This document shows positions 28,089-46,713 of a DNA stretch of 64,000 bases, one piece after another (positions within the stretch are counted from its first letter, which is position 1; every line of letters begins with the position of its first letter). Position numbers and translations under genes: made by a program. Where the stretch lies: the NCBI RefSeq assembly GCF_020037015.1, contig NZ_JAIQDE010000011.1:124001-188000 (forward strand), written 5' to 3'. The notes below the pieces were generated by a model. That model saw only the letters and a list, made by a program, of their open reading frames with translations, was not told where the DNA came from and ran no database searches. Origin of the DNA: Corallococcus sp. AS-1-6. Its GTDB lineage: Bacteria; Myxococcota; Myxococcia; Myxococcales; Myxococcaceae.

Positions 28089-28249
28089 TTTCGCGGGGCG
28101 CGGCCGTTTCCGGAGGCGGCGCCATTGCTTCAATGGTGGACAGCGGGCGGCGCGCCTGCCACACGCGCATGAGTTGAAGCTGGAATGCCCCCGCGCATCA
28201 GGGGTTGATGCGCGCCGGATTCTCACCCTTGTCCGTGCTGGAGAACGCT

Positions 28250-30385
28250 TTGAAGCGACTGGCCCTCTTCGCCGCCTCCTGTGTCCTCGGCGCCGCCTGC
28301 AAGACGGCGGAGCCCACCCCCGAGCCTCCCCAGGCCACCCCCCCGGCCCCCGTGGCCGCCGCCGCGCCGGCCACGCCCGCGCAGCCGGCCCCCGCCGTGC
28401 CCATGTCCGAGCGCCCCATGCCGCCGGGCCTGGACGCCGCGGTGATGGACCCGTCCGTGAACCCCTGTGACGACTTCTACCAGTACGCGTGTGGCGGCTG
28501 GCTGAAGACCACGGAGATCCCCGCCGAGCGCGCGCGCTGGAGCCGCGGCTTCGAGACCGTGGCCGAGCGCAACCAGACCGTGCTGCGCGACATCCTCACG
28601 AAGGCCGCGGAAGGGCAGGGCGAGGGCACCCCGGAGGAGAAGAAGCTGGGGGACTTCTACGGCTCCTGCATGGACGAGGCGAAGCTGGAGCAGTCGCTGC
28701 CCACGCTGCGCACGTACCTGGCGAAGCTCAACGGCCTGAAGAGCCCGCAGGCGGTGGCCGGCGCGGTGGCGTGGCTGCACGCGCGCGACGTGAACGCGCT
28801 GTTCCGCGTGGGCTCGGATCAGGACCAGAAGGACGCCACGCAGGTCATCGCCGTGGTGGACGCCGGGGGCCTGGGCCTGCCGGACCGCGACTACTACCTC
28901 AAGCCCGACGTGAAGATGCGCGAGGCGCGCAACGCCTACCAGGCGCACGTGCAGAAGGTGTTCGAGCTGTTGGGCGACGCGCCCTTCGTGGCCAGCCGCA
29001 AGGCCATTGGCATCCTCGCCATCGAGACGCGCCTGGCCAACGCGCGGCTGCCCAAGGAGGACCGCCGCGAGCCGGAGAAGGTCTACCACCGCCTGGAGCG
29101 CCAGGGCCTGAAGCAACTGGCGCCCGCGTTCCAGTGGGACACGTACTTCGCGCAGGTGGGGCTGCCCGCCGGTGAAGCGCTCAACGTGACGGAGCCGAAG
29201 TTCTTCTCGGAGGTGTCCGCGCTGGTGCGTCAGCAGCGGCCGACGGACATGGGGCCGTACCTCTCCTACCACCTGGTGAAGAGCGTGCAGACGGCGCTGC
29301 CCAAGGCGCTGCGCGACGAGTTCTTCCGCTTCGAGTCCTCGGTGCTCACCGGCGCGAAGGCGGACCTGGCGCGCTGGAAGAAGTGCGTGGACGCCACGGA
29401 CGACGCGCTGCCGCACGCGCTGGCCAAGCCCTTCATCGCGCGCACCTTCGGCGCGGACGGCAAGGCCACCACGCTGGACATGGTCCAGCAGATTGAGCAG
29501 TCCTTCGAGCGCAACCTGGACACGCTGTCCTGGATGGACGCGGAGACCAAGGCGCAGGCGCTGGTGAAGGTGAAGAAGATCACCAACAAGATCGGCTACC
29601 CGGACCAGTGGCGCACCTACGACGGGCTGACGGTGACGCGCGACTCGTTCCTGGACAACCTGCTGGCGGCGGACGCCTTCGAGCAGGCGCGCCAGCTTCG
29701 CAAGGTGGGCCAGCCGGTGGACCGGCAGGAGTGGTTCATGTCGCCGCCCACGGTGAACGCCTACTACAACGCGGCCACCAACGAGATTGTCTTCCCGGCG
29801 GGCATCCTCCAGCCGCCGTTCTTCGGGCGGGACGCGTCCGCGGCGGTGAACTTCGGCGCCATGGGCATGGTGGTGGGCCACGAAATCACCCACGGCTTCG
29901 ACGACGAGGGCCGCCAGTTCGACGCGGACGGCAACCTGCGCACGTGGTGGACCCCGGCGTCGGACAAGGCCTTCCGCGAGCGCGTGTCGTGCGTGAGGAA
30001 CCAGTACGACCAGTACACCGCCGTGGACGACGTGAAGGTGAACGGCAAGCTCACCCTGGGCGAGAACGTCGCGGACCTGGGCGGCCTCAAGCTGGCGTAC
30101 GCGGCCATGGAGGCGTACCTGGCCAAGCACCCGGACCAGGCGGCGAAGGCGAACTCCTACCGCTTCACGCCGGGGCAGCAGTTCTTCCTCGCGCACGCGC
30201 AATCGTGGTGCTCGAAGATTCGTAACGAGGCTGCGCGGCAGCGGGCGCTGACGGATTCGCACTCGCCGGCGTTCCTGCGCGTGAAGGGGCCGGACGTGAA
30301 CCTGCCGCAGTTCCAGCAGGCCTTCTCCTGCCCCGCGGGCTCGCCGATGGTGGCGCCCGCTGCGAACCGCTGTGAGGTCTGGTAA
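28250..30385 (+). CDS. M13-family (neprilysin-type) metalloprotease lipoprotein
   Basis: A 711-residue zinc peptidase. TTG 28250, with GGAG upstream, gives a clean lipoprotein leader LKRLALFAASCVLGAAC; ATG 28208 would add 14 unusual residues. A Pro/Ala linker precedes the M13 N-terminal domain (PSVNPCDDFYQYACGGWLK). The catalytic domain has VGHEITHGFDDEGRQFDADG (HExxH) and GENVADLGGLKLAY (third ligand Glu and Asp). The C-terminus RCEVW is the usual M13 ending. It probably degrades peptides at the cell surface. Its last 53 codons (52 residues plus stop) are part of the 1.5-kb duplicated segment. Confidence 0.93.
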   Translation: MKRLALFAASCVLGAACKTAEPTPEPPQATPPAPVAAAAPATPAQPAPAVPMSERPMPPGLDAAVMDPSVNPCDDFYQYACGGWLKTTEIPAERARWSRGFETVAERNQTVLRDILTKAAEGQGEGTPEEKKLGDFYGSCMDEAKLEQSLPTLRTYLAKLNGLKSPQAVAGAVAWLHARDVNALFRVGSDQDQKDATQVIAVVDAGGLGLPDRDYYLKPDVKMREARNAYQAHVQKVFELLGDAPFVASRKAIGILAIETRLANARLPKEDRREPEKVYHRLERQGLKQLAPAFQWDTYFAQVGLPAGEALNVTEPKFFSEVSALVRQQRPTDMGPYLSYHLVKSVQTALPKALRDEFFRFESSVLTGAKADLARWKKCVDATDDALPHALAKPFIARTFGADGKATTLDMVQQIEQSFERNLDTLSWMDAETKAQALVKVKKITNKIGYPDQWRTYDGLTVTRDSFLDNLLAADAFEQARQLRKVGQPVDRQEWFMSPPTVNAYYNAATNEIVFPAGILQPPFFGRDASAAVNFGAMGMVVGHEITHGFDDEGRQFDADGNLRTWWTPASDKAFRERVSCVRNQYDQYTAVDDVKVNGKLTLGENVADLGGLKLAYAAMEAYLAKHPDQAAKANSYRFTPGQQFFLAHAQSWCSKIRNEAARQRALTDSHSPAFLRVKGPDVNLPQFQQAFSCPAGSPMVAPAANRCEVW

Positions 30386-30414
30386 GGCTTCGGCCCTACC
30401 TGTGGGAGGACGGC

Positions 30415-30663
30415 ATGGGAATCTGCTCGTGGTTGGTGTTGGGCGGTATCGCGGGCTGGCTGGCCAGCATCATCAAGGGCACCAACGCCCGGATGGGGAT
30501 GTTCGCCAACATCTTCGCCGGCATCGTGGGTGCCATGCTGGGCGGCTGGGTGTTCAGCTTCTTCGGAGGCAGCGGCGTGACGGGCTTCAACCTGTACTCG
30601 CTGCTGGTGGCCACGGTGGGCGCCGTCATCCTGCTGTCCATCCTGCAAGCCATCCGGAAATAG
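30415..30663 (+). CDS. GlsB/YeaQ/YmgE-family membrane protein, copy 1
   Basis: An 82-residue protein with three hydrophobic segments and the family pattern MGICSWLVLGGIAGWLAS, then GMFANIFAGIVGAMLGGWVF, then LYSLLVATVGAVILLSILQ. These small 'transglycosylase-associated' inner-membrane proteins are stress-related, with unknown biochemistry. GTGGGAGGACGGC provides the ribosome binding site. An identical copy lies at 42791-43039. It converges with the radical-SAM gene. Confidence 0.92.
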   Translation: MGICSWLVLGGIAGWLASIIKGTNARMGMFANIFAGIVGAMLGGWVFSFFGGSGVTGFNLYSLLVATVGAVILLSILQAIRK

Positions 30664-30691
30664 CGCCCCCGGCTGTCGCGCCCTTCGCTGC

Positions 30692-31726
30692 CTAGAAGAG
30701 CGACAGTTGGGGTGAGGTGGAGGGCCGCGCGGGGCGCCGGAAGGTGTCCGGCGCGGCCTCCGTGATGGACGACGCGCGCATGCCCACCTTGCGCGCCGCC
30801 GTCGCGAAGAGCTGGTGGATGGTCTGGGCGTAGAGCCCTTCGCCGCGCATGCGGTGCTTGAAGCGGCTGTCGGTGAGCTCCCCGCCGCGCGTCTCGCGGA
30901 TGCGGTGCAGCACCCGGTCCGCGCGCAGGGGCAGCTTCGCGCGCAGGCGCTCCTCGAAGACGGCCTGCACGGGGCCGGGGAGCCGCAGGAGCGTGTAGTG
31001 CGCTCTCGTGGCGCCGGCCTCCCGGGCTGAAGCGAGCACCCGCGCGATGTCCTCGTCGTTGAGGCCGGGGATGATGGGGGCCACGGACACGGCCACGTCG
31101 ATGCCGGCCTCGGTGAGCTTGCGGATGGCGGCCAGGCGCCGCTTGGGCGTGGCGACGAGCGGCTCCATGGCGCGCGCCAGCTCCTCGTTGTGGAAGGGGA
31201 GGCTGATGCTCACGAACAGCCGTGTCTCCGCCGCCAGCCGCTGGAGCACGTCCAGGTCGCGCTCAATCAGCACGCCCTTGGTGACGATGCCCACGGGGTT
31301 TCGGTACTCGGCGCAGACCTCCAGGCACTGGCGGGTGAGCCGGAGCGAGGCCTCCAGGGGCTGGTAGCAGTCCGTGACGCCGCTGAAGACGACCGTCTCT
31401 CCCTTCCACGACGGTCGGTCGAAGGCTTCGCGCAGCAGCTCCGGGGCGTTGGGTTTGACGACGAGGCGCGTCTCGAAGTCGGTGCCCGCGCCGAAGTCCA
31501 GGTACTGGTGCGTGGGGCGCGCGTAGCAGTAGGCGCAGGCGTGGAGGCAGCCCCGGTACGGGTTGACGCTCCAGGAGAAGCACACGTCGGGGCTGTCGTT
31601 GGTCGCGATGATGGAGCGGCTGTGGTCCTCCCAGACCTCCAGGCGCGCGGGGGGAATCTCGTCCAGGTACTCCACCGCGGTGCTCGCCCAGGGGTTGGGC
31701 GGATTGTCGACAGGGCGGGCCTTCAC
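30692..31726 (-). CDS. PA0069/SPL-type radical SAM protein, copy 1
   Basis: A 344-residue protein with the radical-SAM cluster motif C60-LHA-C64-AY-C67 in NPYRGCLHACAYCYARP. HQYLDFGAGTDFETRLVVK and FSGVTDCYQPLEASLRLTR are typical of the PA0069 group related to spore photoproduct lyase. It should bind a [4Fe-4S] cluster and S-adenosylmethionine; the reaction is unknown. The C-terminus is basic and ends SPQLSLF. An identical copy is at 43068-44102. No other gene of the operon type is attached; it converges with the GlsB-like gene. Confidence 0.9.
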   Translation of the reverse strand: MKARPVDNPPNPWASTAVEYLDEIPPARLEVWEDHSRSIIATNDSPDVCFSWSVNPYRGCLHACAYCYARPTHQYLDFGAGTDFETRLVVKPNAPELLREAFDRPSWKGETVVFSGVTDCYQPLEASLRLTRQCLEVCAEYRNPVGIVTKGVLIERDLDVLQRLAAETRLFVSISLPFHNEELARAMEPLVATPKRRLAAIRKLTEAGIDVAVSVAPIIPGLNDEDIARVLASAREAGATRAHYTLLRLPGPVQAVFEERLRAKLPLRADRVLHRIRETRGGELTDSRFKHRMRGEGLYAQTIHQLFATAARKVGMRASSITEAAPDTFRRPARPSTSPQLSLF

Positions 31727-31765
31727 CCGGCAAGGGTGCGGCTGAAAGCCCGTTCAGTCGAGGCG

Positions 31766-32178
31766 ATGAGACCCGTAGAACGACGAAGGATGGGGCGCTG
31801 GATGACGTGCCATGACCTTCAGTGGATAGGGTTCACTCACGGTGGGTAATGACCCAGTCGGTTCTGCCCCGCCAAATCAAGCACTACCCAGGGCATCCGC
31901 TGTTGAATTGGATATGTCTTGACAGTGATCAGTCCAACAGTGTGAATATCTTTTCTTTCAGGCTTAGTCGGCTTAGCTTGAAAAAATGTAGTGGCGGTGG
32001 CGGGACTCGGCGCATCCAGGAAGTGTCAGGGGAGCCGAGAAGGGACGACACGCAGCAGGCGGATCCGGGCGTCGCGAGGACGTGACCCCCACCTCTGCAC
32101 GGAGTTGGTTTTCCGAGAGTCGTTGAACGGCATCCCCTGACAGTCCAGGCAGTTCCCAACCCCATTCATGGAGTCCCG
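31766..32178. other. AT-richer noncoding stretch at the left edge of the inserted region
   Basis: About 410 bp with no convincing gene. Base composition from about 31850 to 32000 is visibly more AT-rich than the rest of the window. It contains a possible sigma-70 promoter (31919-31949) and a GGCTTAG/GCTTAGC direct repeat near 31961-31978. It starts exactly where copy 1 of the duplication ends. Confidence 0.6.
31919..31949 (+). promoter_or_regulatory. Possible sigma-70 promoter for the FG-GAP/MopE lipoprotein gene
   Basis: A perfect TTGACA at 31919-31924 is followed after 19 bases by GAATAT (or after 17 by GTGAAT with a TG extension). The -10 is imperfect and the leader to the ATG at 32179 would be long, so this is tentative. 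Confidence 0.3.
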
Positions 32179-35100
32179 ATGCGTTTATTGAAATGGTGTC
32201 ACGCCGGGGTGTTGGTACCCACCCTGCTGCTGGCGGCTTGCGAAAAGCCCGCTGAAGGGCCCGCGTCCGCCCCGGAGCTGAAATCCACCAGGAGCCGGCT
32301 GGGGACGGGCGAGATTTCGTTGGCGACGATAGCTCCGCTCGATCGGTTTAGTGGAAAGGCTGGCGGCCGTACCGGTATGTCGTTGGCCAGCGGAGACCTC
32401 AACGGCGATGGTCTCAGCGACCTCGTCGTTGGTGCCCCAGGTCCTGCCTCCGGCACCTTCGTAAGTGAAATCTATGTTCTCCGAGGGAACACATCCCCGG
32501 ACATCAGAACTGCCTCCAACCTGCTCAATGGTGTCAACGCCTACCGGGCGGGTGCCAGTATTGGGGTTGGCAATTACACGGGAACGAGCCGGAGCGACCT
32601 CCTGGTTGGAGCGCCCGGGTATAGCCTGAACCGTGGCACCACCTACCTGCTGGACGGCACTTCGTTGTCCTCGGGGACGGTCCAACTCTCCACGGCCAGG
32701 AACATCGCAGGCCTTTCGCCCAATGACACCGCTGGCTTCGCCGTGGCCCTGGGCGACGTCACGGGCAGCCCGGATGTGGACCTCATCATCGGAGCCCCCA
32801 ATCGCACCACGGGGAGCGGGGCCGTCTACGTCGTCAAGGGGCCCATCAATCTGGCGACCGTGGCGACGACACTCACCGGCGCCGCCACCACCATCACGGG
32901 ACCCGCGGGCAATGCGATCCAGGCAGGGACGTCGCTCGCGACCGCGGACCTCAATGGCGATGGCGCGACGGACCTCATCATCGGCTCTCCCAAGCACAAC
33001 GGAACGGGCGCCGTCTTCGTTTTCTTCGGGCCCTTGCCCCAGAGCTCGACGGCACTGTCCATCACGAGCGCGAACCTGACGCTCCTCGGGGCCACGGCGA
33101 ACGAGCTTGCGGGCACCTCGGTGGCTCGCGTGCCGGACGTCGATGGCGATGGGGATGACGAGCTGCTGGTGGGCGCTCCCGGAACGGGCTCACTCCCGGG
33201 CAAGGCCTACCTGGTGTACGGCGGCTCCTCGGGCACACATGCGCTGACCACATTCCCGCAGTTCGTCGGTACGGCGGGTGACCTCGCGGGCACCTCCGTC
33301 GCGGCGGTGGGGGATGTGGATCACGATGGCTTCACGGATTATCTGGTGGGAGCCCCGGGCACCGCATCCGGTGCGGGAGCCGCCTACTTGATTCACGAAG
33401 GCCCCACGCCGTTCGCGGACACCCAGCCACTCTCCGACTTCTATCGTTTCTCGGGTGAGTCTGCGGGTGATGGCGCCGGAACGACCGTGGCGGGTGTCGG
33501 AGATGTCAACGGTGACGGGAATCCCGACATCGCGATTGGCGCCCCCACCACGGGCGGCACCACGGGCACTGTCTACCTGCTGTATTGGCGCACCTGGTAC
33601 GGCGACGCAGATGGTGACGGCTTCGGAGACCGTCAGCAGCTGCATGAAGGCTTCTTCAAGCCGACGGAGGGCGCTTGGGTCGAGAATGCCGACGACTGTG
33701 ACGACTCCAATGAGTCCATCAATCCCAATGCGCTGGAAATCTGCAACAATATTGACGACAACTGCCGCAACGGTGTCGACCTGGATGACCCCGAGATTGT
33801 CGGAGCGGACATCTATTACACCGACCAGGATGGTGATGGACATATCCAACCCGAGGATTTTGGAGAGCCCGCGTGCAGCCGTCCCGACGGCAAAATCCCT
33901 GTCGAAGAGGCCTTGGGCCTGGAGTGCAGCGACAGGAACAGCGACGACGACGCGACCACGTACGATGGCGCCAACGAGGTCTGCGATACCAAGGATAACA
34001 ACTGCGACAACACCATCGACGAAGGTGTGACGGCCGACTACTTCCGTGACTCGGATGGTGACACCTATGGTGATCCCAATGACGCGGTCGCGGCCTGCTC
34101 GCCGCCGTCCGGCTACGTCACCAACAACACGGACTGCGATGACACCCGGGACACCGTAAGCCCGGCCGCCGTCGAGGTCTGCAACGGCCAGGACGACAAC
34201 TGCGATGGGTCCTCCGACACCAACGCGACCTGGTACGTCGACCTGGATGGCGATGGCTTCGGCTCGGATACCCCGTATCCTCCCATCACCGTGGCGGCGT
34301 GCGGTGCCGTGCCGTTCGGCTATGCCAACAACAAGGACGACTGCAACGACCGGAACGCCTCGGTGGGCGGTCCCAAGGTCTGGCACCCGGATACGGATGG
34401 TGACGGCTTTGGTGATCCCAGCCAGGAGGTCAAGGCCTGTACGCAGCCGGCGGGTTACGTCGCAAATGACACGGATTGCGACGACACCACCAACACCGTG
34501 ACGGAGATCCACTGGTATCCGGATGGTGACGGCGACGGCTTCGGCAGCCCGAACGGACACGTCAGCGCCTGCGTCGGGCCGCCCGCTGGGTACGTCGCGC
34601 TCAACACGGACTGCAATGATACGAACGCATCGGTTGCTCCGAACCAGGCCGAGGTCTGCAACGGCGTGGACGACAACTGCAGTGGCGCCGCCGACGAGGG
34701 CGTGACGTCGACCTTCTACCGCGACGCGGACGGTGACGGCTTTGGCGACCTCAACACCACCACCCAGGCCTGCGCCGCGCCCCCGGGCTACACCTCCGAT
34801 ACCACGGACTGCAACGACAGCGACGCGACGATCAACCCGCAGACGCTCTGGTACGCGGACACGGACTCGGACGGCTTCGGCAGCACGACGTCCACCATGT
34901 CATGCGTGAAGCCCGATGGGTTCGTCCGAGTCAACACCGACTGCAACGACAACAGCAACACCACCCATCCCGGCGCCCTGGAGTTCTGCAACGGCGCGGA
35001 CGATGACTGCAACTCGGTCATCGACGACAGCACCGCGGTCGACACCGTCACCTGGTACCGGGACGGCGATGGCGACGGTCACGGCCAGTCCTTCGATTCG

Positions 35101-36468
35101 AAGAAGGCCTGCACCGCGCCCAGCGGGTACGTCAGCAGCAGCGACGACTGCAACGACACGAACGCGGCCATGTTCCCGGGCAACCCGGAGGTCTGCGACG
35201 GGCTCGACAACAACTGTGACTACGAGAAGGACGAGAACGTGAAGAACACCGTCTACCGCGACGTGGACGGCGACGGCTTCGGAACCCCGCTCTCCTTCCA
35301 GCTCGTCTGCGACACGCCCGCCGGCTACGTGTCCAACAACCAGGACTGCAACGACAACAACAGCAGCGTCGCCCCGGGCCTCGCCGAGGTCTGTAACGGC
35401 GTGGATGACAACTGCGACGGCGTTGTCGACGAAGGCGTCAAGACCACCTACTACGCCGACCAGGACGGCGATGGCTTCGGGACGACCAACGCGGCCTACG
35501 CCACGGAGGCCTGCTCCGCTCCTCCCGGCTACACGCAGACCCCGGGCGATTGTGACGACCGCCGGAGCGAAGCAAACCCCTCGGGCACGGAGGTCTGCGA
35601 CGGGCTCGACAACAACTGCGACGGTGCCGTGGACGAAGGCGTCCAGCTGACCTGGTACCAGGACTCGGACGGCGATGGCTTCGGCGTCCCCGGCGTGACG
35701 ACCCTGGCCTGCACCAAGCCGGCCGGCTACTCGGCCAACACCACGGACTGCGATGACAGCCGGGGTGACGTCAGCCCGGGCAGCGTGGAGCTGTGCGAAG
35801 CCGTCAGCAGCGCGCAGGTGGACAACGACTGTGACGGGCAGGTGGACGACGCCATCAACGCGCGCACCTGGTACCAGGACGCGGACAACGATGGGTTCGG
35901 GCGCGAAAGCCAGACGGCGCAGGCGTGCGCGGCTCCGGCCGGCTACGTCGACAAGCCGGGCGACTGCGACGACACGCTCGCCAATGTCTATCCGCAGGCT
36001 CCGGAGACCTGTGAGACGACCGGCCCGCAGGTTGACAACAACTGCAACGGCGACCTGAACGACGATCCCAACGCCCCCATCTGGTACGGCGACGGAGACG
36101 GGGACAACTACGCGGGGACCACGTTCCAGCTGCGTTGGTGCACGGACCCCAGCAACCTGACGGACCCGAGCGGCAAGGTCATCGTCCGGGGCCATTACGT
36201 GCCCAGCCTCATCCCCACGGACTGCAATGACAGCAACGCGAGCATCAGCCCCGGACAGACCGAGGTCTGCAACAACATCGACGACAACTGTGACGGCCAG
36301 GTCGATGAAGGGACCCAGACGGCGTTCTATCCGGACGCGGACAACGACGGCTGCGGTTCGAGTGCCTCCGCGCCGCACATGGGCTGTGGGGCGCCAGGCG
36401 CGTGTGGGTTCAACTTCGTCACCAACAACAGTGACAGGGACGATCAGAACGCGTCCATCTGCCTCTAG
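32179..36468 (+). CDS. Lipoprotein with seven FG-GAP repeats and MopE-type metal-binding repeats
   Basis: A 1429-residue surface-type protein. The N-terminus MRLLKWCHAGVLVPTLLLAAC is a lipoprotein signal. Residues about 55-475 hold seven FG-GAP units (for example SLASGDLNGDGLSDLVVGAP, AGVGDVNGDGNPDIAIGAP), enough for one integrin-like seven-bladed propeller with Ca-binding DxNGDG loops. Residues about 475-1429 are some 15 units of WYxDxDGDGFG...GYV...DCxD, of which 11 carry the ExCNGxDDNCDGxxDEG core of the MopE-like putative metal-binding family. The final unit is degenerate (NNSDRDDQNASICL, Cys to Arg). It probably binds Ca and perhaps copper at the cell surface. It lies inside the repeat-bounded region. 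Confidence 0.88.
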   Translation: MRLLKWCHAGVLVPTLLLAACEKPAEGPASAPELKSTRSRLGTGEISLATIAPLDRFSGKAGGRTGMSLASGDLNGDGLSDLVVGAPGPASGTFVSEIYVLRGNTSPDIRTASNLLNGVNAYRAGASIGVGNYTGTSRSDLLVGAPGYSLNRGTTYLLDGTSLSSGTVQLSTARNIAGLSPNDTAGFAVALGDVTGSPDVDLIIGAPNRTTGSGAVYVVKGPINLATVATTLTGAATTITGPAGNAIQAGTSLATADLNGDGATDLIIGSPKHNGTGAVFVFFGPLPQSSTALSITSANLTLLGATANELAGTSVARVPDVDGDGDDELLVGAPGTGSLPGKAYLVYGGSSGTHALTTFPQFVGTAGDLAGTSVAAVGDVDHDGFTDYLVGAPGTASGAGAAYLIHEGPTPFADTQPLSDFYRFSGESAGDGAGTTVAGVGDVNGDGNPDIAIGAPTTGGTTGTVYLLYWRTWYGDADGDGFGDRQQLHEGFFKPTEGAWVENADDCDDSNESINPNALEICNNIDDNCRNGVDLDDPEIVGADIYYTDQDGDGHIQPEDFGEPACSRPDGKIPVEEALGLECSDRNSDDDATTYDGANEVCDTKDNNCDNTIDEGVTADYFRDSDGDTYGDPNDAVAACSPPSGYVTNNTDCDDTRDTVSPAAVEVCNGQDDNCDGSSDTNATWYVDLDGDGFGSDTPYPPITVAACGAVPFGYANNKDDCNDRNASVGGPKVWHPDTDGDGFGDPSQEVKACTQPAGYVANDTDCDDTTNTVTEIHWYPDGDGDGFGSPNGHVSACVGPPAGYVALNTDCNDTNASVAPNQAEVCNGVDDNCSGAADEGVTSTFYRDADGDGFGDLNTTTQACAAPPGYTSDTTDCNDSDATINPQTLWYADTDSDGFGSTTSTMSCVKPDGFVRVNTDCNDNSNTTHPGALEFCNGADDDCNSVIDDSTAVDTVTWYRDGDGDGHGQSFDSKKACTAPSGYVSSSDDCNDTNAAMFPGNPEVCDGLDNNCDYEKDENVKNTVYRDVDGDGFGTPLSFQLVCDTPAGYVSNNQDCNDNNSSVAPGLAEVCNGVDDNCDGVVDEGVKTTYYADQDGDGFGTTNAAYATEACSAPPGYTQTPGDCDDRRSEANPSGTEVCDGLDNNCDGAVDEGVQLTWYQDSDGDGFGVPGVTTLACTKPAGYSANTTDCDDSRGDVSPGSVELCEAVSSAQVDNDCDGQVDDAINARTWYQDADNDGFGRESQTAQACAAPAGYVDKPGDCDDTLANVYPQAPETCETTGPQVDNNCNGDLNDDPNAPIWYGDGDGDNYAGTTFQLRWCTDPSNLTDPSGKVIVRGHYVPSLIPTDCNDSNASISPGQTEVCNNIDDNCDGQVDEGTQTAFYPDADNDGCGSSASAPHMGCGAPGACGFNFVTNNSDRDDQNASICL

Positions 36469-36477
36469 CAGGACCCC

Positions 36478-36541
36478 GCGGCCCGCCTGACCGGGCGGGC
36501 CGCACCCCGTGGAGCCCCGAACGCGGCGTTCGGGGCTCCAC
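36478..36541. terminator. Tandem double hairpin between convergent genes
   Basis: The first hairpin is a perfect 10-bp stem (36478-36487 with 36494-36503, GCGGCCCGCC). The second is a perfect 14-bp stem (36509-36522 with 36528-36541, starting GTGGAGCCCC) with a 5-base loop. They lie between the ends of the MopE-repeat gene and the opposing SBP-fusion gene, so they probably terminate both. Confidence 0.75.
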
Positions 36542-36562
36542 GCCCTGCGCGGCGCCAGGCGC

Positions 36563-38440
36563 TCAGTCGCGGAAGTACCAGAGGTGCGCGCCTCCACCCA
36601 GGTCCCGGGCCTGTGGCTGGCGTTCAAGCAGCAGGGGCGACTGCGCGTGGAGCAGCTCTTCTCCGTTCGGCGCCACCACGCGCGTCAGATGCCACTCCCC
36701 CAGGTCCCGCAGCCGCTCGAACCAGGCCTGATCGTAGGGCATGACCGCGGCCAGGAGTTCCTGCTGCTCCAGCCGCTCGCCCAGCCGATCCAGGTCGGGC
36801 ACCTGGGCCACGGAGACACGGTCCAGACGGGGAGTGCCCCGGAAGTACGCGCGGAAGGCGCGAAGCTCCACGGCGTCCGGGCCCAGCCGCTCCACCACGA
36901 AGGGCCCACTGCCCACGGGCTTGGAACCGAAACCCTGCGGATCCGCCTCGTAGGCCGTCCGCGGCACGATGCCCGCGGACAGCAGCGGCGTCAGCGCGTC
37001 CGGTGCGTCCAGCAGGAACGTCACCTGGCGGCCCTGCAGGGTGACGTCGAGCACGCGCGCGGCCCACGCACGCCAGGGCGACTCCTGCTCGCGCATCCGC
37101 TGGAAGCTGAAGCGGACGTCCTCCGCCGTCACCGGGGTGCCGTCGTGGAAGTGGACATCCCCCCGCAGCGTCGCGGTGACGGCGTAGCGGCGGGTGCCGC
37201 CCACGTCCACCGGCTGCGGCGCGCTCCAGGCCTCGGCGAGGTCCGGCACGGCTTCGCCCTGAGGGCCGTCGCGCCTGCCCAGCCCGCGGAAGACGAGCCC
37301 CATGAGGCTCGAGGACTCCATGGGCCCGGCACGCAGCGGATCCAACCGTGACAGGACGCGGAAGTCCCCCAGCGCCAGCGCCTGCCTCGGCCGGACTCGC
37401 ACCGTGCGGGTGAAGGCGCGCCGTGCGCGGTCCTCCCCTGGCACAGTGCCCTCCGTGTCCGCGACGAAGCGCACCGTGTGCGTTCCCTGACCCAACTGGA
37501 GCTGCCTGCGGATGCTGCTCTCCGCCGAGCGCTGCCCTGGCTCCAGGGGCCCATGGGGGAGCTCCGCAACGGGCGCTCCGTCCACGCTCCATTGCACCTT
37601 GAAGGCGGATGTCGCGAGCGCGCCGGGATTGGCCACCAGCGCCTCCACGTCGAAGGGCTCGTCCGCGAACACCACCTCCGTGCCGATGCGCAGCTCCTCG
37701 ACCAGCAGGTCGGGAACGGTGGACTCCCAGGCGATGACGTTGGAGGGCTGCGCGCCCAGCACCGCGAAGACGAGCCCCGCGCCCCGCGCCTCGGGCGGGA
37801 CCTCCACCGTCACCCGGGAGGAGCTCCAGTCCAGCACCTGCGCCTCGCGCCCGTGGAACATCACCACCGAGCCCGCGGGCCGCACCAGCCCCAGGTTGCC
37901 ACCCTCCAGCACCACGGTGCTTCCCGGGGTGCCTCGCGCCGGCCGGGCGAGCGTGAAGTAGGGCAGGCCTCGCCAGTCGCGCAGCTTCGTTTCGGGGAGG
38001 TCCGTTTTGCGGCTGACCTCCGCCAGCATGGAGGAGGTGCGGGTGTAGCGGAGCAGGTCGTCCACTGAATAGATGCCAATGGCATTGAGTGCGCGGATCT
38101 CCGTCAGGGTGATGCCAGGGAGTTTCGCCAGGGGGCCGTTGGTGGTCGTGTCCTCCATCGGGTGGCGAAGGCCCGCCAGCTGGCTCTCCAGGACCTGGGC
38201 GAAGTCCAGCTTGAGCAGTGTGTCGCTGGTCTGACCGGGGTCCACCGCCCGGAAGAAGAGGCGGCCTTCCAGGTCCCGGCGCAGCGTCACCTCCGCGTCC
38301 AGGGAGATCTTCTTGATGGAGAAGGTCACCTTGCGTGAGTACGACTTGAGCAGGAGCGTGTCCTCTGCCCGGTCTACCTCCGCTGCGATGGCATCCACCA
38401 CGTCGGCGAGCTGCCACTCGATGTTGTCCTGCGCACTCAT
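36563..38440 (-). CDS. Unusual fusion: small N-domain, HhH, IPT, CARDB and SBP_bac_5-like domain
   Basis: A 625-residue protein with no signal peptide. Residues about 6-80 have one amphipathic helix followed by beta strands (LADVVDAIAAEVDRAEDTLL, KVTFSIKKISLDAEVTLRR), resembling trypsin-co-occurring domain 2. Residues 104-135 form a helix-hairpin-helix (LAKLPGITLTEIRALNAIGI). Residues 168-236 are an IPT/TIG-like beta domain; 242-350 a CARDB-like domain (DLLVEELRIGTEVVFADEPF). Residues 360-600 look like the first lobe of a family 5 solute-binding protein (LRGDVHFHDGTPVTAEDVRF, KPVGSGPFVVERLG). Domain calls are by eye. Its start overlaps the stop of the 96-residue gene by four bases. Function unknown. 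Confidence 0.75.
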   Translation of the reverse strand: MSAQDNIEWQLADVVDAIAAEVDRAEDTLLLKSYSRKVTFSIKKISLDAEVTLRRDLEGRLFFRAVDPGQTSDTLLKLDFAQVLESQLAGLRHPMEDTTTNGPLAKLPGITLTEIRALNAIGIYSVDDLLRYTRTSSMLAEVSRKTDLPETKLRDWRGLPYFTLARPARGTPGSTVVLEGGNLGLVRPAGSVVMFHGREAQVLDWSSSRVTVEVPPEARGAGLVFAVLGAQPSNVIAWESTVPDLLVEELRIGTEVVFADEPFDVEALVANPGALATSAFKVQWSVDGAPVAELPHGPLEPGQRSAESSIRRQLQLGQGTHTVRFVADTEGTVPGEDRARRAFTRTVRVRPRQALALGDFRVLSRLDPLRAGPMESSSLMGLVFRGLGRRDGPQGEAVPDLAEAWSAPQPVDVGGTRRYAVTATLRGDVHFHDGTPVTAEDVRFSFQRMREQESPWRAWAARVLDVTLQGRQVTFLLDAPDALTPLLSAGIVPRTAYEADPQGFGSKPVGSGPFVVERLGPDAVELRAFRAYFRGTPRLDRVSVAQVPDLDRLGERLEQQELLAAVMPYDQAWFERLRDLGEWHLTRVVAPNGEELLHAQSPLLLERQPQARDLGGGAHLWYFRD

Positions 38441-38727
38441 GGGCCCTCCGGGGTCGTGCCGACGGACTGGACGCTCAACGTGATGGCCACGCGGCCCACG
38501 CCTGTCACCGCGGGCGAGTCCCGGGTGCTGGGGAGGGTGAGGACGAAGCGCGCGGGTTCCTCCTGCGGATCCGTGCCTGCCTCGCGAAGCCGCAGGTAGG
38601 CCGGGACGTTCAGGTCCACGTCCTTGACCTGGAGCCGGAGCCCGGCCTCCTGGGAGGTCCGGTCGATGGAGTCGGCCAGGTCATCGAAGATGAGGGTGAG
38701 GAGATCACCGAGGGAAATGTCAGCCAT
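38437..38727 (-). CDS. Small protein of the three-gene accessory operon
   Basis: A 96-residue protein with a helix (SLGDLLTLIFDDLADSIDRT) followed by strands (LRLQVKDVDLNVPAYLRL, RFVLTLPST, GRVAITLSVQSVG). This helix-plus-strands layout parallels residues 6-80 of its downstream neighbour, and both resemble the Trypco2-type module, though similarity is only by pattern. No signal peptide or Cys. It starts 72 bp after the 355-residue gene ends and overlaps the next gene (ATGA), so the three are one operon. Confidence 0.7.
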   Translation of the reverse strand: MADISLGDLLTLIFDDLADSIDRTSQEAGLRLQVKDVDLNVPAYLRLREAGTDPQEEPARFVLTLPSTRDSPAVTGVGRVAITLSVQSVGTTPEGP

Positions 38728-38799
38728 GGGAGTGGATAGGCACCGGAGGAGGGGACCGCGGGACTGGCGGCGGGATGCCGCCAGCCCCGCGGTGTGAGG

Positions 38800-39867
38800 T
38801 CAGTTGATGGGGTCATCCACGACGATGGGCGCGAAGGTCTCGGTCCGGAACTGGATGCGGACCTGCCCGATGATCTCTGCGTTCATCGTCACGGCGTCGA
38901 AGGAACTCTCGTTCACGGAACTCACCTGCAGGTTGCTGTAGCTGGCGCCGAAGCTCGTCCTGAACCAGCCGCCGAACCCCACGCGGCCGCTGACGTTCGC
39001 GCTGAAGTTGCTCTGGTCGTAGCGGTTGCGCTGCACGGTCTGCGCGTCGGTGGACGTGACCGTGAAGGTCAGCCGCGAGAGGATCTCTCCGTTGGAGACC
39101 ACGATGCGAGCCATGCCATCCCGGGCCATGGCGCGCAGGTGGGTGATCATCTTGATGGCCAGCATCTCCGCGATGGCGGCGCGGATCAGGTCCACCTGCG
39201 CCGTGGTGAACGACGTGGCGGAAGAGGAAACCTCGTTCGGCGACACGAACTGGAGCGGGACCTTGTTGTCCTTCGTCTCCTCGAGCAGGGCAGTGACGAC
39301 CTGCATGAGGTTCTCATGAGCCGTCGTCGCGGGCGCGCCCGTGGCGGCGTCCGCCGCCGTGTCCTTGAACGTGTAGCCCGTGCGGCAGCTGGTGCCCCCG
39401 AGGCCATCCCCGTAGCGCTGGGACAGGTGCGCGTTGACCTGCGCGGTGGTCACGTGCTCTTCCTGGAACTCGGCCAGCGTCTTCGCCAGATCCGCCACCA
39501 GCTCCGCGTAGGCCTTCATCTGCTTGATGGTGGCCCCGACGATGGCGTCGAAGGTGCCGGTGATGAGCCCCGCGGTGAACTCCACGAAGCCCAGGTTCTG
39601 CACCTGCTTGAGCGCCGCCACGCCGGAGTCCAGCGCCGGCGTGGCCAGGGTGGAGGGGGGGCTCCGGGGCTGGCGCGTGGACAGGTGCTGGATGGCGCCG
39701 TGCACGGCCTCGCCCACCGCCTCTCGCACGCTCATGCGCTGCTTCTCGTCCCGGATGCCAGCGACCGCGTCGTCGATGGTCTTCATCAGGGGGGCCAGGT
39801 CCCGCTCATAGCCAGACGGCTGCGCTGCGCCCGGGCGCTTGCCCCGGGCACGAATGCTCTTTTCCAT
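38800..39867 (-). CDS. Unrecognised 355-residue protein, first gene of the accessory operon
   Basis: The protein starts MEKSIRARGKRPG at 39867, with no signal peptide. Residues 20-140 are helical (MKTIDDAVAGIRDEKQRMSV, FDAIVGATIKQMKAYAELV). The middle has a lone Cys (GTSCRTGYTF, about 161) and helices (VDLIRAAIAEMLAIKMITHL). Residues about 255-350 are beta-rich with an alternating Gly/aromatic pattern (FSANVSGRVGFGGWFRTSFG, AEIIGQVRIQFRTETFAPIV), like an amphipathic hairpin. No family was recognised. It leads the operon with the 96- and 625-residue proteins and is divergent from the SBBP-repeat gene (about 140 bp). Confidence 0.7.
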   Translation of the reverse strand: MEKSIRARGKRPGAAQPSGYERDLAPLMKTIDDAVAGIRDEKQRMSVREAVGEAVHGAIQHLSTRQPRSPPSTLATPALDSGVAALKQVQNLGFVEFTAGLITGTFDAIVGATIKQMKAYAELVADLAKTLAEFQEEHVTTAQVNAHLSQRYGDGLGGTSCRTGYTFKDTAADAATGAPATTAHENLMQVVTALLEETKDNKVPLQFVSPNEVSSSATSFTTAQVDLIRAAIAEMLAIKMITHLRAMARDGMARIVVSNGEILSRLTFTVTSTDAQTVQRNRYDQSNFSANVSGRVGFGGWFRTSFGASYSNLQVSSVNESSFDAVTMNAEIIGQVRIQFRTETFAPIVVDDPIN

Positions 39868-40006
39868 GATGTGCGTCCTCTTGGTGATGGTGCGGTGTCG
39901 CGACGGGCCCGTATGCCCATGGGCTGCGCGCGACGAAGCTCATGATGCAGGAATGGTCTGACATTCACGTTTTGCTGGTATGTGGTCCAAGCATGGGAGG
40001 ATGCGG

Positions 40007-42604
40007 ATGATGCGGAGCGCGAAACTTCGACTGGTATTGGGGCTGTCCTGGCTGGGCGGGGGGGCCGCCGAGGCTCAATCGCCCGAGCACCTGACGCCGC
40101 CTGTCTGGAGCCGGCAGTTGGGAACGACCCGGTACGAGCAGGTGTCTGGCATCGCGGCGTCATTCAATGACGTATTCCTGGCGGGCTACAGCCAGGGACA
40201 GCTCGGGACGGAACCCTCCGCGGGAAGCTCGGACGCCTTCGTGGCGCGCCTGCGTGCCAGCGGCGAGGTCGCCTGGACGCGGCAGTTTGGCTCATCAGCG
40301 AATGAGTACGTCACGGGCGCGGCGGTGCATGACGCCAGTCCCAACGCGGTGGCTGTGTATGCCACGGGCTACACCTCCGCGGCCCTGCCTGGGAATGTCC
40401 TCGTGGGAATGTCCGACGCCTTCCTCGCGAGGTACGACGCGCAAGGAGGGCTGCAATGGCTCCGGCAGTTCGGCACGTCCTCCGGTGACTTCGCCCAGGG
40501 CGTCGCGACCGCGCCGGACGGCAATGTCTATGTGGTGGGGTACACCTCCGCGTCCATGGACGGCCAGGCCTGGGCGGGAGGTCAGGATGCCTTCGTGGTG
40601 AAGTACGACGCGGCGGGGGACCGGCAGTGGTCACGGCTGACGGGGACCAGCAAGAACGACCAGGCCCGGGCCGTGGCCGTGGGGGCGGACGGCAGCGTCT
40701 ACGTCACGGGTTTCACGTTCGGAGGGCTCAATGGCAACGCCAACGCAGGGGGCACCTCCTCCACGACGTCGGATCTCTTCCTCGTGAAGTACGACGCCGC
40801 AGGGCAGCGGCTGTGGACGCGGCAGCTCGGCACGAGCACCCCGGACGTCGCCCAGGCGGTCGCCACGTCCCGCCGCGCTTCAGGCGAGGTCGAAATCTAT
40901 GTCGCTGGACGCACGCAGGGCGGGCTGGATGGCAATGCTTCGCTCGGGAGTCATGACATTGTCGTGGTAAAATACGATGCGTCGGGAAACCGCGTGTGGA
41001 CGCGGCAATTGGGGACGTCTGGAGAAGAGCAGGTGTTTGGGGTCACTTCGGACGGCGGAGGCAATGTCTATGTAACGGGTTCCGTTCCTTCGGACCTCCA
41101 GACAGACGCGCCGCTGGGCAGCAATGACCTGGTGTTGTTCAAGCTGGATGCTGCGGGTGGGCTCCAGGCCCGCCGGCAGCTGGGGTCCACTCCCGCGGGG
41201 GACCCTGCGCGCATCAGCGATGCGGGGCTCGCCGTGGCGGTGGACCCGGGGCGGGGCGTCTATGTCGGCGGCTACACGGAGGGACTGCTCGGGGCGACTC
41301 CTTCAGGGGACAAGGACGCCGTGGTGGTGAAGTACCTGGAAGGCTGCGAGGAAACCTCTCCCGGGCAGTGCGCGTGGGGCTACGGCTGGGGCCGTCAACG
41401 TGCTCCGGATGGATGGGTGCGGCAGCTCGGGTCCACACTGGACGATCATGCGGCGGCCATCGTCGCGACGCAGGATGGCCTCTATACAGTGGGTGAAACC
41501 TACGGCAGCTTCCATGGAGGCGCCCCGCTGGGCGGAGGCGACCTGTTCCTGTCCGCCCACGACACGCAGGGCGGGCTTCGCTGGGTCCGGCAGTTTGGCA
41601 CCGCCGATGATGAATTGATTGGCAGCCTGGCCGCGGACGGCGCGGGCAACCTCTATGTCGCCGGAGGCACCAGTGGTGCCTTCACCGGCCACACCTCGGC
41701 GGGCTTCTTCGATGCATTCCTGGCCAGGTATGACGCCTCGGGGCAGCGGCTCTGGACCTGGCAACTCGGCTCGTCGGAGTTCGATCTGGCCCGCGCGGTG
41801 GCGGCCGCGCCTGGCGGCGGTGTCTACGTCGTGGGCAGTACGTATGGAAACCTCGATGGCAACCTGAGCGCTGGCTACGGTGAGAGTGACTTCTTCATCT
41901 CGAAGGTGGACGCCGCCGGAGGCCGGGAGTGGACGCGCCAACTGGGAACCGCGGGGCCGGATGAAGCCGTGGCCGTAGCGGTGGACTCACTGGGAGGCGT
42001 CTACGTCGCGGGGACGACGTCGGGCGGCATGGGCACGGGAGGTTCGCAAGGGGACACGGACGTCGTGCTCGTGAAGCTCGATGCGGACGGACACGTCCTG
42101 TGGTCCCGCCAGATGGGCTCGCCGGGGCCCGACTCGACCGTGGGCGTGGTGGAGACCTCGGCTGGCATCCTCGTCGCGGGAGGCGCCGGCAGTGGTGGCG
42201 GCGGTCAGCCGTCGCTGGGGGGCAACGACTTCTTCACCGCCCTCGTGACGCCAAGCACCGGGCAGCCCCTCGGCTGGCGGCAGTTCGGCTCGGGGTTCGA
42301 CGAGTACGTGGGAGGGCTCTCCACGGACGGCGCGGGCGGCGCATGGCTCACGGGGAGCACGTTAGGGGCCATGGGAACGCCGCTGGGAGGCCAGGACGCG
42401 GTGTTGATACACCTCTCGGCCCAGGGCCAGCCCCAGCAGGTGCGTCAGCTCGGTACCGTGGATGACGAGCATGCGACGGGCGTCACCGTGGATGCCCAGG
42501 GCCGCGTCTATCTGGTGGGCGAGACATTGGGCGTCTTCGAGGGCCAGGCGTCCTCGGGCTCGTTCGACGTTTTCGTCTTGAAGGATGACGCGCCGCTCGA
42601 CTGA
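40007..42604 (+). CDS. Double SBBP-repeat (beta-propeller) exported protein
   Basis: About 865 residues. Of several in-frame ATGs (39980, 40001, 40007, 40010), 40007 has GGGAGG at the best spacing and gives a signal peptide (AKLRLVLGLSWLGG, ending AEAQ). The rest is 14 SBBP repeats, each with a W(T/S)RQLGT strand, a GxVYVxGYT strand and DAFVxKYDAxG. Seven lie before and seven after an odd linker holding the only two Cys (EGCEETSPGQCAWGYGWGRQ), so two seven-bladed propellers are likely. The stop TGA spans the junction with repeat copy 2: T belongs to the unique side, GA to the repeat. Confidence 0.88.
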   Translation: MMRSAKLRLVLGLSWLGGGAAEAQSPEHLTPPVWSRQLGTTRYEQVSGIAASFNDVFLAGYSQGQLGTEPSAGSSDAFVARLRASGEVAWTRQFGSSANEYVTGAAVHDASPNAVAVYATGYTSAALPGNVLVGMSDAFLARYDAQGGLQWLRQFGTSSGDFAQGVATAPDGNVYVVGYTSASMDGQAWAGGQDAFVVKYDAAGDRQWSRLTGTSKNDQARAVAVGADGSVYVTGFTFGGLNGNANAGGTSSTTSDLFLVKYDAAGQRLWTRQLGTSTPDVAQAVATSRRASGEVEIYVAGRTQGGLDGNASLGSHDIVVVKYDASGNRVWTRQLGTSGEEQVFGVTSDGGGNVYVTGSVPSDLQTDAPLGSNDLVLFKLDAAGGLQARRQLGSTPAGDPARISDAGLAVAVDPGRGVYVGGYTEGLLGATPSGDKDAVVVKYLEGCEETSPGQCAWGYGWGRQRAPDGWVRQLGSTLDDHAAAIVATQDGLYTVGETYGSFHGGAPLGGGDLFLSAHDTQGGLRWVRQFGTADDELIGSLAADGAGNLYVAGGTSGAFTGHTSAGFFDAFLARYDASGQRLWTWQLGSSEFDLARAVAAAPGGGVYVVGSTYGNLDGNLSAGYGESDFFISKVDAAGGREWTRQLGTAGPDEAVAVAVDSLGGVYVAGTTSGGMGTGGSQGDTDVVLVKLDADGHVLWSRQMGSPGPDSTVGVVETSAGILVAGGAGSGGGGQPSLGGNDFFTALVTPSTGQPLGWRQFGSGFDEYVGGLSTDGAGGAWLTGSTLGAMGTPLGGQDAVLIHLSAQGQPQQVRQLGTVDDEHATGVTVDAQGRVYLVGETLGVFEGQASSGSFDVFVLKDDAPLD

Positions 42605-42761
42605 GGCTGCGCGGCAGCGGGCGCTGACGGATTCGCACTCGCCGGCGTTCCTGCGCGTGAAGGGGCCGGACGTGAACCTGCCGCAGTTCCAGCAGGCCTT
42701 CTCCTGCCCCGCGGGCTCGCCGATGGTGGCGCCCGCTGCGAACCGCTGTGAGGTCTGGTAA
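42603..42761 (+). pseudogene. 3' fragment of the M13 metalloprotease gene
   Basis: Fifty-three codons matching the end of the M13 gene (EAARQRALTDSHSPAF to RCEVW and stop) without start, promoter or catalytic part. It is a passenger of the duplication and marks copy 2 as the derived left junction. Confidence 0.92.
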
Positions 42762-42790
42762 GGCTTCGGCCCTACCTGTGGGAGGACGGC

Positions 42791-43039
42791 ATGGGAATCT
42801 GCTCGTGGTTGGTGTTGGGCGGTATCGCGGGCTGGCTGGCCAGCATCATCAAGGGCACCAACGCCCGGATGGGGATGTTCGCCAACATCTTCGCCGGCAT
42901 CGTGGGTGCCATGCTGGGCGGCTGGGTGTTCAGCTTCTTCGGAGGCAGCGGCGTGACGGGCTTCAACCTGTACTCGCTGCTGGTGGCCACGGTGGGCGCC
43001 GTCATCCTGCTGTCCATCCTGCAAGCCATCCGGAAATAG
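42791..43039 (+). CDS. GlsB/YeaQ/YmgE-family membrane protein, copy 2
   Basis: Identical 82-residue product to 30415-30663, with the same ribosome binding site because the upstream M13 tail was copied too. Whether it is transcribed depends on read-through from the SBBP gene or a promoter inside the M13 tail. Confidence 0.9.
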   Translation: MGICSWLVLGGIAGWLASIIKGTNARMGMFANIFAGIVGAMLGGWVFSFFGGSGVTGFNLYSLLVATVGAVILLSILQAIRK

Positions 43040-43067
43040 CGCCCCCGGCTGTCGCGCCCTTCGCTGC

Positions 43068-44102
43068 CTAGAAGAGCGACAGTTGGGGTGAGGTGGAGGG
43101 CCGCGCGGGGCGCCGGAAGGTGTCCGGCGCGGCCTCCGTGATGGACGACGCGCGCATGCCCACCTTGCGCGCCGCCGTCGCGAAGAGCTGGTGGATGGTC
43201 TGGGCGTAGAGCCCTTCGCCGCGCATGCGGTGCTTGAAGCGGCTGTCGGTGAGCTCCCCGCCGCGCGTCTCGCGGATGCGGTGCAGCACCCGGTCCGCGC
43301 GCAGGGGCAGCTTCGCGCGCAGGCGCTCCTCGAAGACGGCCTGCACGGGGCCGGGGAGCCGCAGGAGCGTGTAGTGCGCTCTCGTGGCGCCGGCCTCCCG
43401 GGCTGAAGCGAGCACCCGCGCGATGTCCTCGTCGTTGAGGCCGGGGATGATGGGGGCCACGGACACGGCCACGTCGATGCCGGCCTCGGTGAGCTTGCGG
43501 ATGGCGGCCAGGCGCCGCTTGGGCGTGGCGACGAGCGGCTCCATGGCGCGCGCCAGCTCCTCGTTGTGGAAGGGGAGGCTGATGCTCACGAACAGCCGTG
43601 TCTCCGCCGCCAGCCGCTGGAGCACGTCCAGGTCGCGCTCAATCAGCACGCCCTTGGTGACGATGCCCACGGGGTTTCGGTACTCGGCGCAGACCTCCAG
43701 GCACTGGCGGGTGAGCCGGAGCGAGGCCTCCAGGGGCTGGTAGCAGTCCGTGACGCCGCTGAAGACGACCGTCTCTCCCTTCCACGACGGTCGGTCGAAG
43801 GCTTCGCGCAGCAGCTCCGGGGCGTTGGGTTTGACGACGAGGCGCGTCTCGAAGTCGGTGCCCGCGCCGAAGTCCAGGTACTGGTGCGTGGGGCGCGCGT
43901 AGCAGTAGGCGCAGGCGTGGAGGCAGCCCCGGTACGGGTTGACGCTCCAGGAGAAGCACACGTCGGGGCTGTCGTTGGTCGCGATGATGGAGCGGCTGTG
44001 GTCCTCCCAGACCTCCAGGCGCGCGGGGGGAATCTCGTCCAGGTACTCCACCGCGGTGCTCGCCCAGGGGTTGGGCGGATTGTCGACAGGGCGGGCCTTC
44101 AC
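43068..44102 (-). CDS. PA0069/SPL-type radical SAM protein, copy 2
   Basis: Identical 344-residue product to 30692-31726, including C60/C64/C67. Upstream sequence beyond 44141 differs from copy 1 (here the 3' end of the DUF4135 gene, there a noncoding AT-richer stretch), so the two copies may have different promoters. In this position it lies 50 bp downstream of the DUF4135 gene in the same direction and could be cotranscribed with it. Confidence 0.9.
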   Translation of the reverse strand: MKARPVDNPPNPWASTAVEYLDEIPPARLEVWEDHSRSIIATNDSPDVCFSWSVNPYRGCLHACAYCYARPTHQYLDFGAGTDFETRLVVKPNAPELLREAFDRPSWKGETVVFSGVTDCYQPLEASLRLTRQCLEVCAEYRNPVGIVTKGVLIERDLDVLQRLAAETRLFVSISLPFHNEELARAMEPLVATPKRRLAAIRKLTEAGIDVAVSVAPIIPGLNDEDIARVLASAREAGATRAHYTLLRLPGPVQAVFEERLRAKLPLRADRVLHRIRETRGGELTDSRFKHRMRGEGLYAQTIHQLFATAARKVGMRASSITEAAPDTFRRPARPSTSPQLSLF

Positions 44103-44152
44103 CCGGCAAGGGTGCGGCTGAAAGCCCGTTCAGTCAAGGCGCCCGTGTCCCG

Positions 44153-46554: not shown

Positions 46555-46640
46555 GCGCCGGAATCTACCGGCGGGAGGGCGGCCCGGAAACACGAAGGCC
46601 GGTGGTCCCGAGAAGGAACCACCGGCCCGTGTCTCTTCAG

Positions 46641-46713
46641 AGCGGCGGAAGGGATTCGAACCCTCGACCCCGAGCTTGGGAAGCTCGTGCTCTACCAACT
46701 GAGCTACCACCGC
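46641..46713 (-). tRNA. tRNA-Gly(CCC)
   Basis: A 73-base cloverleaf on the minus strand. Acceptor arms GCGGTGG and CCGCCGC pair with one G-U. The D-arm GCTC/GAGC, the anticodon stem CGAGC/GCTCG with loop TTCCCAA (anticodon CCC), and the T-arm GAGGG-TTCGAAT-CCCTT are all intact. The discriminator is T and CCA is not encoded. It reads GGG codons for glycine. Confidence 0.96.

What the first reader, a model, noticed from the sequence alone, without database searches (positions are those of the whole stretch)
30227..44141. Near-perfect 1.54-kb direct repeats 12,376 bp apart
The tail of the M13 gene, a GlsB-like gene and a radical-SAM gene occur twice with constant offset 12,376. Both genes translate identically and shadow frames also match. 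The left edge is sharp at 30227/42603; the right edge fades within AGGCG. The M13 gene is whole only in copy 1, so copy 2's left junction is derived. Homologous recombination could excise a 12.4-kb circle. Campbell-type integration or recent segmental duplication would explain it; an assembly error must be excluded.
Basis: partly seen in the sequence, partly recalled or inferred. Interest (0 to 1): 0.8.

Follow-up and report, generated by a model that had tools for sequence, protein, structure and literature searches.

The report
Foreign gene block with resident-gene duplication
In a soil bacterium a 10.8-kb block of four foreign-looking genes sits beside a tRNA gene, at a spot whose contents vary among relatives, and is flanked by a perfect 1.5-kb second copy of the neighbouring genes; it looks like a recent, fairly ordinary rearrangement that still needs long reads to prove.

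Summary
The repeat is real in the sequence: 30227-31759 equals 42603-44135 at 1533 of 1533 bases, then one mismatch and five matches. It is the longest exact repeat in the 1.23 Mb of this 9.5-Mb genome that I surveyed; the next is 312 bp. In the 15 other genomes of the genus the unit (end of an M13 peptidase gene, GlsB-like gene, radical-SAM gene) gives one strong locus each, so the second copy is derived. Between the copies lies a 10.8-kb four-gene block. In the genus only one other genome has it, at another place; a genome of another genus has it in the same gene order. The site is a variable slot between the radical-SAM promoter and a tRNA-Gly gene, 0.7-12.9 kb long in 11 relatives. So a foreign block entered an island hot spot together with a duplication of resident DNA. 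A one-step duplication during insertion, or a free circle merged in by the assembly, is not excluded: this assembly shows one 16S gene where three complete relatives each have three.

The parts
28205..30385 (+). M13-family peptidase gene, whole
   Evidence: Pfam Peptidase_M13_N and Peptidase_M13
30227..31765 (.). Copy 1 of the repeat (identical core 30227-31759)
30415..30663 (+). GlsB-like (Transgly_assoc) gene, copy 1
   Evidence: PF04226 E 4e-14
30692..31726 (-). PA0069-family radical-SAM gene, copy 1
   Evidence: NF033668 410 bits over cut-off 360
31742..31757 (.). SOS-box-like site before radical-SAM copy 1; two bases further the repeat ends; -35-like TTGACT changed to TCGACT by the base at 31760
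   Evidence: pattern match, consensus in PMC9705874 passages; conservation
31760..31765 (.). Junction J1: radical-SAM promoter meets the gene block
31766..42602 (.). Gene block (cargo), 10,837 bp
   Evidence: absent at this place in relatives; block seen in G007 and G109
32179..36468 (+). 1429-aa protein with FG-GAP and MopE-type metal-binding repeats
   Evidence: PF01839, PF11617
36563..38440 (-). 625-aa protein: weak Trypco2-like start, TIG, CARDB, SBP_bac_5
38800..39867 (-). 355-aa protein of unknown family (c355)
   Evidence: no family over cut-off; homologues
39980..42604 (+). SBBP beta-propeller protein, 874 aa; its stop codon spans junction J2 and ends at the same residue as in G007
   Evidence: PF06739, NF047494
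42602..42605 (.). Junction J2: block end meets the inside of the M13 gene; shared GAG
42603..44141 (.). Copy 2 of the repeat (identical core 42603-44135)
42603..42761 (+). M13 gene tail, a remnant without start
   Evidence: and copy 1 coordinates
42791..43039 (+). GlsB-like gene, copy 2
   Evidence: identity of copies
43068..44102 (-). Radical-SAM gene, copy 2
44118..44133 (.). SOS-box-like site, copy 2, with the conserved CAAG after it
44142..44164 (.). Piece resembling the tRNA-Gly 3' end and trailer (20 of 23 bases, counted by eye against 46626-46648)
   Evidence: sequences printed
44153..45811 (-). LanM-like (DUF4135) gene, part of the older slot content shared with G006 and G010
46640..46713 (-). 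tRNA-Gly (CCC), right border of the variable slot

Best explanation
A recent insertion of a horizontally acquired four-gene block into the slot between the radical-SAM promoter and tRNA-Gly, with a duplication of resident DNA. Proposed route: (1) in a very close relative the block occupied the slot directly after the radical-SAM gene (inferred); (2) a fragment holding the end of M13, GlsB, radical-SAM and the block was released and closed into a circle by joining the block's end to the inside of the M13 gene at a shared GAG (J2; junction shown, joining inferred); (3) one RecA-type exchange between the 1.5-kb unit on the circle and the same unit on a chromosome without the block put the whole 12,376-bp circle in (inferred). 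The product is exactly what is seen: M13 whole on the left, truncated on the right, two identical units, block between. The same 1.5-kb homology should let the circle come out again or amplify (inferred).
For: Two identical units around foreign DNA at constant offset. One strong locus in 15 of 15 other genomes of the genus; no block beside it in the loci read. Block foreign: only G007 of 15 other genus members has it, at another place; it differs 23-25% there while the resident unit differs 11%, and it is present in G109 of another genus with the same order; lower G+C, 0.670 against 0.701. J1 lies at the normal start of the slot: in 17 of 17 relatives' loci the conserved box is followed by CAAG, and in most loci compared the sequence then diverges, so a donor with the block in the slot is plausible and J2 is then the only illegitimate joint. 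Experimental precedent: of 60 E. coli clones that took up one-side-homologous plasmid DNA, 56 gave the diagnostic PCR product and 14 sequenced ones had a 109-950 bp duplication of the homologous end, ascribed to a single crossover of a shortened, re-closed circle (PMC3240628, section 12 read).
Against: Zero differences in 1533 bases needs a donor almost identical to the recipient (chance 0.05 at 0.2% divergence, 0.22 at 0.1%) or later gene conversion. No genome holding the unit next to the block without duplication was seen, so step 1 is unproven. No Ku gene was found in the genome, so the joint would need another end-joining route. In G006 and G010, 1.29 and 3.08 kb of other DNA lie between radical-SAM and the DNA that follows copy 2 here, so copy 2's right neighbour is itself a rearranged state and its age relative to the block is unknown. 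No plasmid or viral record with the block was found.
Confidence: 0.5

Rival explanations
1. One-step insertion with a long target duplication: the block was joined at both ends by illegitimate events to a chromosome being repaired or replicated, and the 1.5 kb between the two joining points was copied twice (template switch, or exchange between sister chromosomes). No donor homology and no circle are needed.
For: Same product. Perfect identity follows at once, since both copies come from the same cell. J2 has a short shared GAG. Small duplications without flanking repeats are reported in pneumococcus (PMC3784515, passages).
Against: J1 would fall by coincidence within two bases of the end of the conserved box, where the slot starts in relatives. 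The five shared bases AGGCG after the mismatch at 31760 are unexplained by it except as chance or microhomology.
Confidence: 0.27
2. Assembly product: the chromosome has one unit, and the block lies on a free 12,376-bp circle carrying one unit, or in part of a mixed culture. Short reads give the same graph for both, and the assembler walked it as a tandem.
For: The assembly holds one 16S gene (C63) where three complete relatives hold three each, so long repeats are collapsed; a 1533-bp exact repeat inside a contig is the only one of its size in the 1.23 Mb surveyed. The single G/A difference sits at the edge and cannot phase the copies. Graph equivalence is my reasoning, not a tool result.
Against: The order left flank, unit, block, unit, right flank is the simplest path through the graph; no replication or mobility gene is in the block by Pfam, NCBIfam; no plasmid record matches.
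Confidence: 0.18
3. Site-specific or transposon insertion: an integrase acting at tRNA-Gly, or an IS, moved the block.
For: The slot borders a tRNA-Gly, and tRNA 3' fragments lie inside the slot in 4 of 13 relatives' loci scanned. In G007 an IS4/5-family transposase gene lies 66 bases after the block.
Against: Neither J1 nor J2 carries a tRNA fragment (one search finds only the gene itself in the window); no inverted ends or short target duplication; no integrase or transposase in the block; a 1.5-kb target duplication is not produced by known transposases (general knowledge).
Confidence: 0.05

Closest known systems
Single-crossover (Campbell-type) integration with partial duplication of the target, E. 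coli, PMC3240628
   Same: Foreign DNA flanked by a direct duplication of part of the resident locus, whole gene on one side and truncated gene on the other
   Different: There the duplications were 109-950 bp and made in the laboratory; here 1533 bp, natural, donor unknown
Homology-facilitated illegitimate recombination
   Same: One homologous and one illegitimate joint can add foreign DNA
   Different: Its classical product deletes resident DNA (PMC3240628, section 12); here DNA is duplicated
tRNA-adjacent genomic island hot spots
   Same: Variable slot beside tRNA-Gly with tRNA 3' fragments in some relatives
   Different: The insertion studied is at the far (radical-SAM) side of the slot and lacks att-like ends and an integrase
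Repeat-flanked circularizable units (unusual circularizable intermediates; recalled name)
   Same: Direct repeats flanking cargo without a recombinase, able in principle to circularise by homologous recombination
   Different: Excision not observed here; repeats consist of resident chromosomal genes

Membership tests
Campbell-type integration product | Direct repeats of one homologous segment flanking inserted DNA, one outer gene whole and its inner copy truncated | tested here: met
Campbell-type integration product | Existence of a circular donor carrying the segment and the cargo | not testable with these tools
   no reads; no record in plasmids or viral contigs, which is weak evidence
Homology-facilitated illegitimate recombination | One joint homologous, the other illegitimate | tested here: inconclusive
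   J2 illegitimate-looking (GAG shared); whether J1 is an inherited slot border or a second illegitimate joint is open
Homology-facilitated illegitimate recombination | Deletion of resident DNA at the target | tested here: not met
   resident DNA is duplicated
tRNA-integrated genomic island | att direct repeats including the tRNA 3' end at both ends of the insert | tested here: not met
   no tRNA fragment at J1 or J2; a 23-base tRNA-end-like piece lies at 44142-44164, beside the older slot content
tRNA-integrated genomic island | Tyrosine or serine integrase in the insert | tested here: not met
Composite transposon | Flanking IS copies or terminal inverted repeats | tested here: not met
   no inverted repeats of 30 bp in 29000-45500; flanking repeats are resident genes
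LexA (SOS) regulated gene | Match to CTRHAMRYBYGTTCAGS in the promoter | tested here: inconclusive
   16-base core matches in both copies, last base T instead of S; full core match in 6 of 17 relatives' loci

The most novel reading that the evidence does not exclude
The 12,376-bp unit is a self-sufficient shuttle: a promoter-proximal, SOS-box-marked resident unit serves as portable homology that lets gene blocks enter, leave and amplify at this tRNA-Gly slot by RecA alone, so that DNA damage would both induce the radical-SAM genes and raise excision of the block.
Probability: 0.06. Interest if true: 0.6.

Novelty: new member of a known kind. Interest (0 to 1): 0.33.

Why it matters
It is a fresh, base-resolved example of how a gene block enters an island hot spot without its own integrase, caught before the duplication has decayed. 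If excision by the 1.5-kb repeats occurs, the block and a second radical-SAM/GlsB pair would be unstable, and the strain would offer a simple system to measure RecA-driven gain and loss. It also shows a trap: in a short-read draft, an integrated block and a free circle look the same.

Tried and rejected
Rejected: that J1 arose through microhomology between the radical-SAM promoter and DNA upstream of the block in G007 (a similar TCAGTCGA occurs there); the alignment shows that stretch is not homologous in position, and the block's conserved start is only near 31908. Rejected: IS-driven movement, since the transposase beside the block in G007 has no counterpart at J1 or J2. Led nowhere: the 150-base spacer 31760-31910 matches nothing but a 26-base piece near C2:243,804 and orthologous places; PADLOC gives no defence family for six proteins; a fold of the 355-aa protein from two sequences is unusable (mean pLDDT 38.6) and was not searched. 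Pfam on 28 slot ORFs chosen by length and codon composition from relatives and neighbours of the block (30 proteins given, two of them from the window) showed no integrase; these are a choice, not all slot ORFs.

A paper search for Corallococcus islands beside tRNA genes gave one unrelated paper; the Mx9/attB search gave two papers that I did not open. My memory that a Myxococcus phage integrates at a tRNA-Gly was therefore not confirmed and is not used.
Full report
Observation.

Anatomy. From left: M13 peptidase gene (28205-30385, +), GlsB-like gene (30415-30663, +), radical-SAM gene (30692-31726, -; PA0069 family over its cut-off), then at 31760 the four-gene block, then at 42603 the last 159 bases of the M13 gene again, GlsB, radical-SAM, and from 44142 the older neighbourhood with a LanM-like gene and a tRNA-Gly (CCC) at 46640-46713. 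The block holds a 1429-aa FG-GAP/MopE-repeat protein, a 625-aa protein with TIG, CARDB and SBP_bac_5 parts, a 355-aa protein of no known family, and an 874-aa SBBP propeller protein. No mobility gene was recognised in it.

Relatives. In one search the unit gave a match in 72 of 79 relatives; each of the 15 other genus members has one strong locus (in G010 it is split by a 1.24-kb insertion between GlsB and radical-SAM; in G007 by a contig break whose ends share 119 bases). The list of weak matches was cut by the tool. Nine or so of the 15 are fragmented drafts in which an identical second copy could be hidden; the three single-contig genomes (G006, G010, G013) are the firm evidence. I read 16 loci with flanks, 12 of the same genus: none has the block beside the unit, but in G002 only about 0.2 kb and in G003 about 1.2 kb follow the unit before the contig ends. 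G009 and G015 were not read with flanks.

The block elsewhere. A search of the 16 genus genomes (list cut by the tool) finds the block whole only in the window and, at 77% and 75%, in G007 (C387), not beside the unit. The 355-aa protein is found in 6 of 96 family genomes including the own one and one weak hit. The full four-gene order is in G007 and G109; G090 has three of the four, G079 two, and contig C44 of the own genome a diverged partial pair. The named collection gave one locus, a Myxococcaceae metagenome contig of the same length as the G007 contig. The SBBP protein ends LKDDxPLD-stop in both window and G007, so the stop at 42602-42604 is the natural end and the junction falls inside the stop codon, leaving the gene intact.

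Foreignness. Between window and G007 the resident unit is 89% identical and the block 75-77%. G+C is 0.670 in the block and 0.701 in the unit; third-position G+C is 0.81-0.93 for block genes against 0.93-0.97 for the unit's genes and M13. These agree with acquisition from outside the genus.

The slot. In 17 of 17 relatives' loci the radical-SAM gene is preceded by CTGAA..GTTCAGTCAAG. This resembles the M. xanthus SOS box CTRHAMRYBYGTTCAGS (PMC9705874, passages); the 16-base core matches twice in the window, once per copy, with 0.0025 expected, but the last base differs and 11 of 17 relatives miss the strict core. Just beyond it sequences diverge in most comparisons. The distance to the tRNA-Gly is 0.70-12.9 kb in the 11 relatives measured (10 of the genus, one other). 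Some slots are shared (G006, G010 and the window share the LanM-like part; G001 with G011; G007 with G012). tRNA-Gly 3'-end fragments of 32-99 bases lie inside the slot in G001, G010, G013 and G032, 4 of 13 loci scanned, and a 23-base piece at 44142-44164 of the window resembles the tRNA end (by eye). This is a tRNA-adjacent island hot spot.

Which copy is old. Copy 1 keeps the whole M13 gene; copy 2 keeps the conserved CAAG after the box, while copy 1 has CGAG. So both joints with the block are derived. A caution: in G006 and G010 other DNA (1.29 and 3.08 kb) stands between radical-SAM and the DNA that follows copy 2 here, so the right side of copy 2 is also a changed state.

Mechanism. Three routes give this product: single crossover of a circle, one-step insertion with duplication, and an assembly walk through a graph shared with a free circle. 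I favour the first because J1 lies at the normal start of the slot, leaving only J2 as illegitimate, and because the same geometry was the main product (56 of 60 clones by PCR) in an E. coli experiment (PMC3240628, section 12 and passages read). Against it stands the perfect identity, which needs a nearly identical donor, and the absence of Ku (control positive in Bacillus subtilis only, 1 of 14). The assembly route keeps weight because one 16S gene is present where G006, G010 and G013 have three each.

Consequence. The strain should have two radical-SAM and two GlsB genes; the -35-like TTGACT of radical-SAM copy 1 reads TCGACT, so copy 1 may be weak (inference). Recombination between the units would excise 12,376 bp and restore one unit (inference).

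Verdict. The most novel reading, a RecA-driven shuttle at an SOS-marked unit, has no direct evidence.

Noticed in passing
window:32179-42604: A four-gene block (FG-GAP/MopE-repeat protein, TIG-CARDB-SBP chimera, 355-aa unknown, SBBP propeller) kept in the same order in three genomes of two genera; function unknown.
   Followed up: partly
window:36563-38440: An unusual protein: Trypco2-like start (below cut-off), TIG, CARDB and the first half of a family-5 solute-binding domain on one chain; homologues keep the same length.
   Followed up: no
L036:9156-9254, L039:10784-10851, L035:7566-7597, L046:7453-7493: tRNA-Gly 3'-end fragments inside the slot of relatives, traces of integrations at this tRNA.
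   Followed up: partly
L039:5437-6672: In G010 a 1.24-kb insertion with a 371-aa frame of no Pfam family splits GlsB from radical-SAM.
   Followed up: partly
window:44153-45811: A LanM-like gene matching only the N-terminal part of the LanM model, possibly a lone dehydratase.
   Followed up: no
G000 contig C44, about 387-392 kb: Runs of exact repeats at offset 3171 (up to 312 bp), looking like tandem modules of a large modular gene.
   Followed up: no
L070:12115-12915: An IS4/5-family transposase gene directly after the block in G007.
   Followed up: partly
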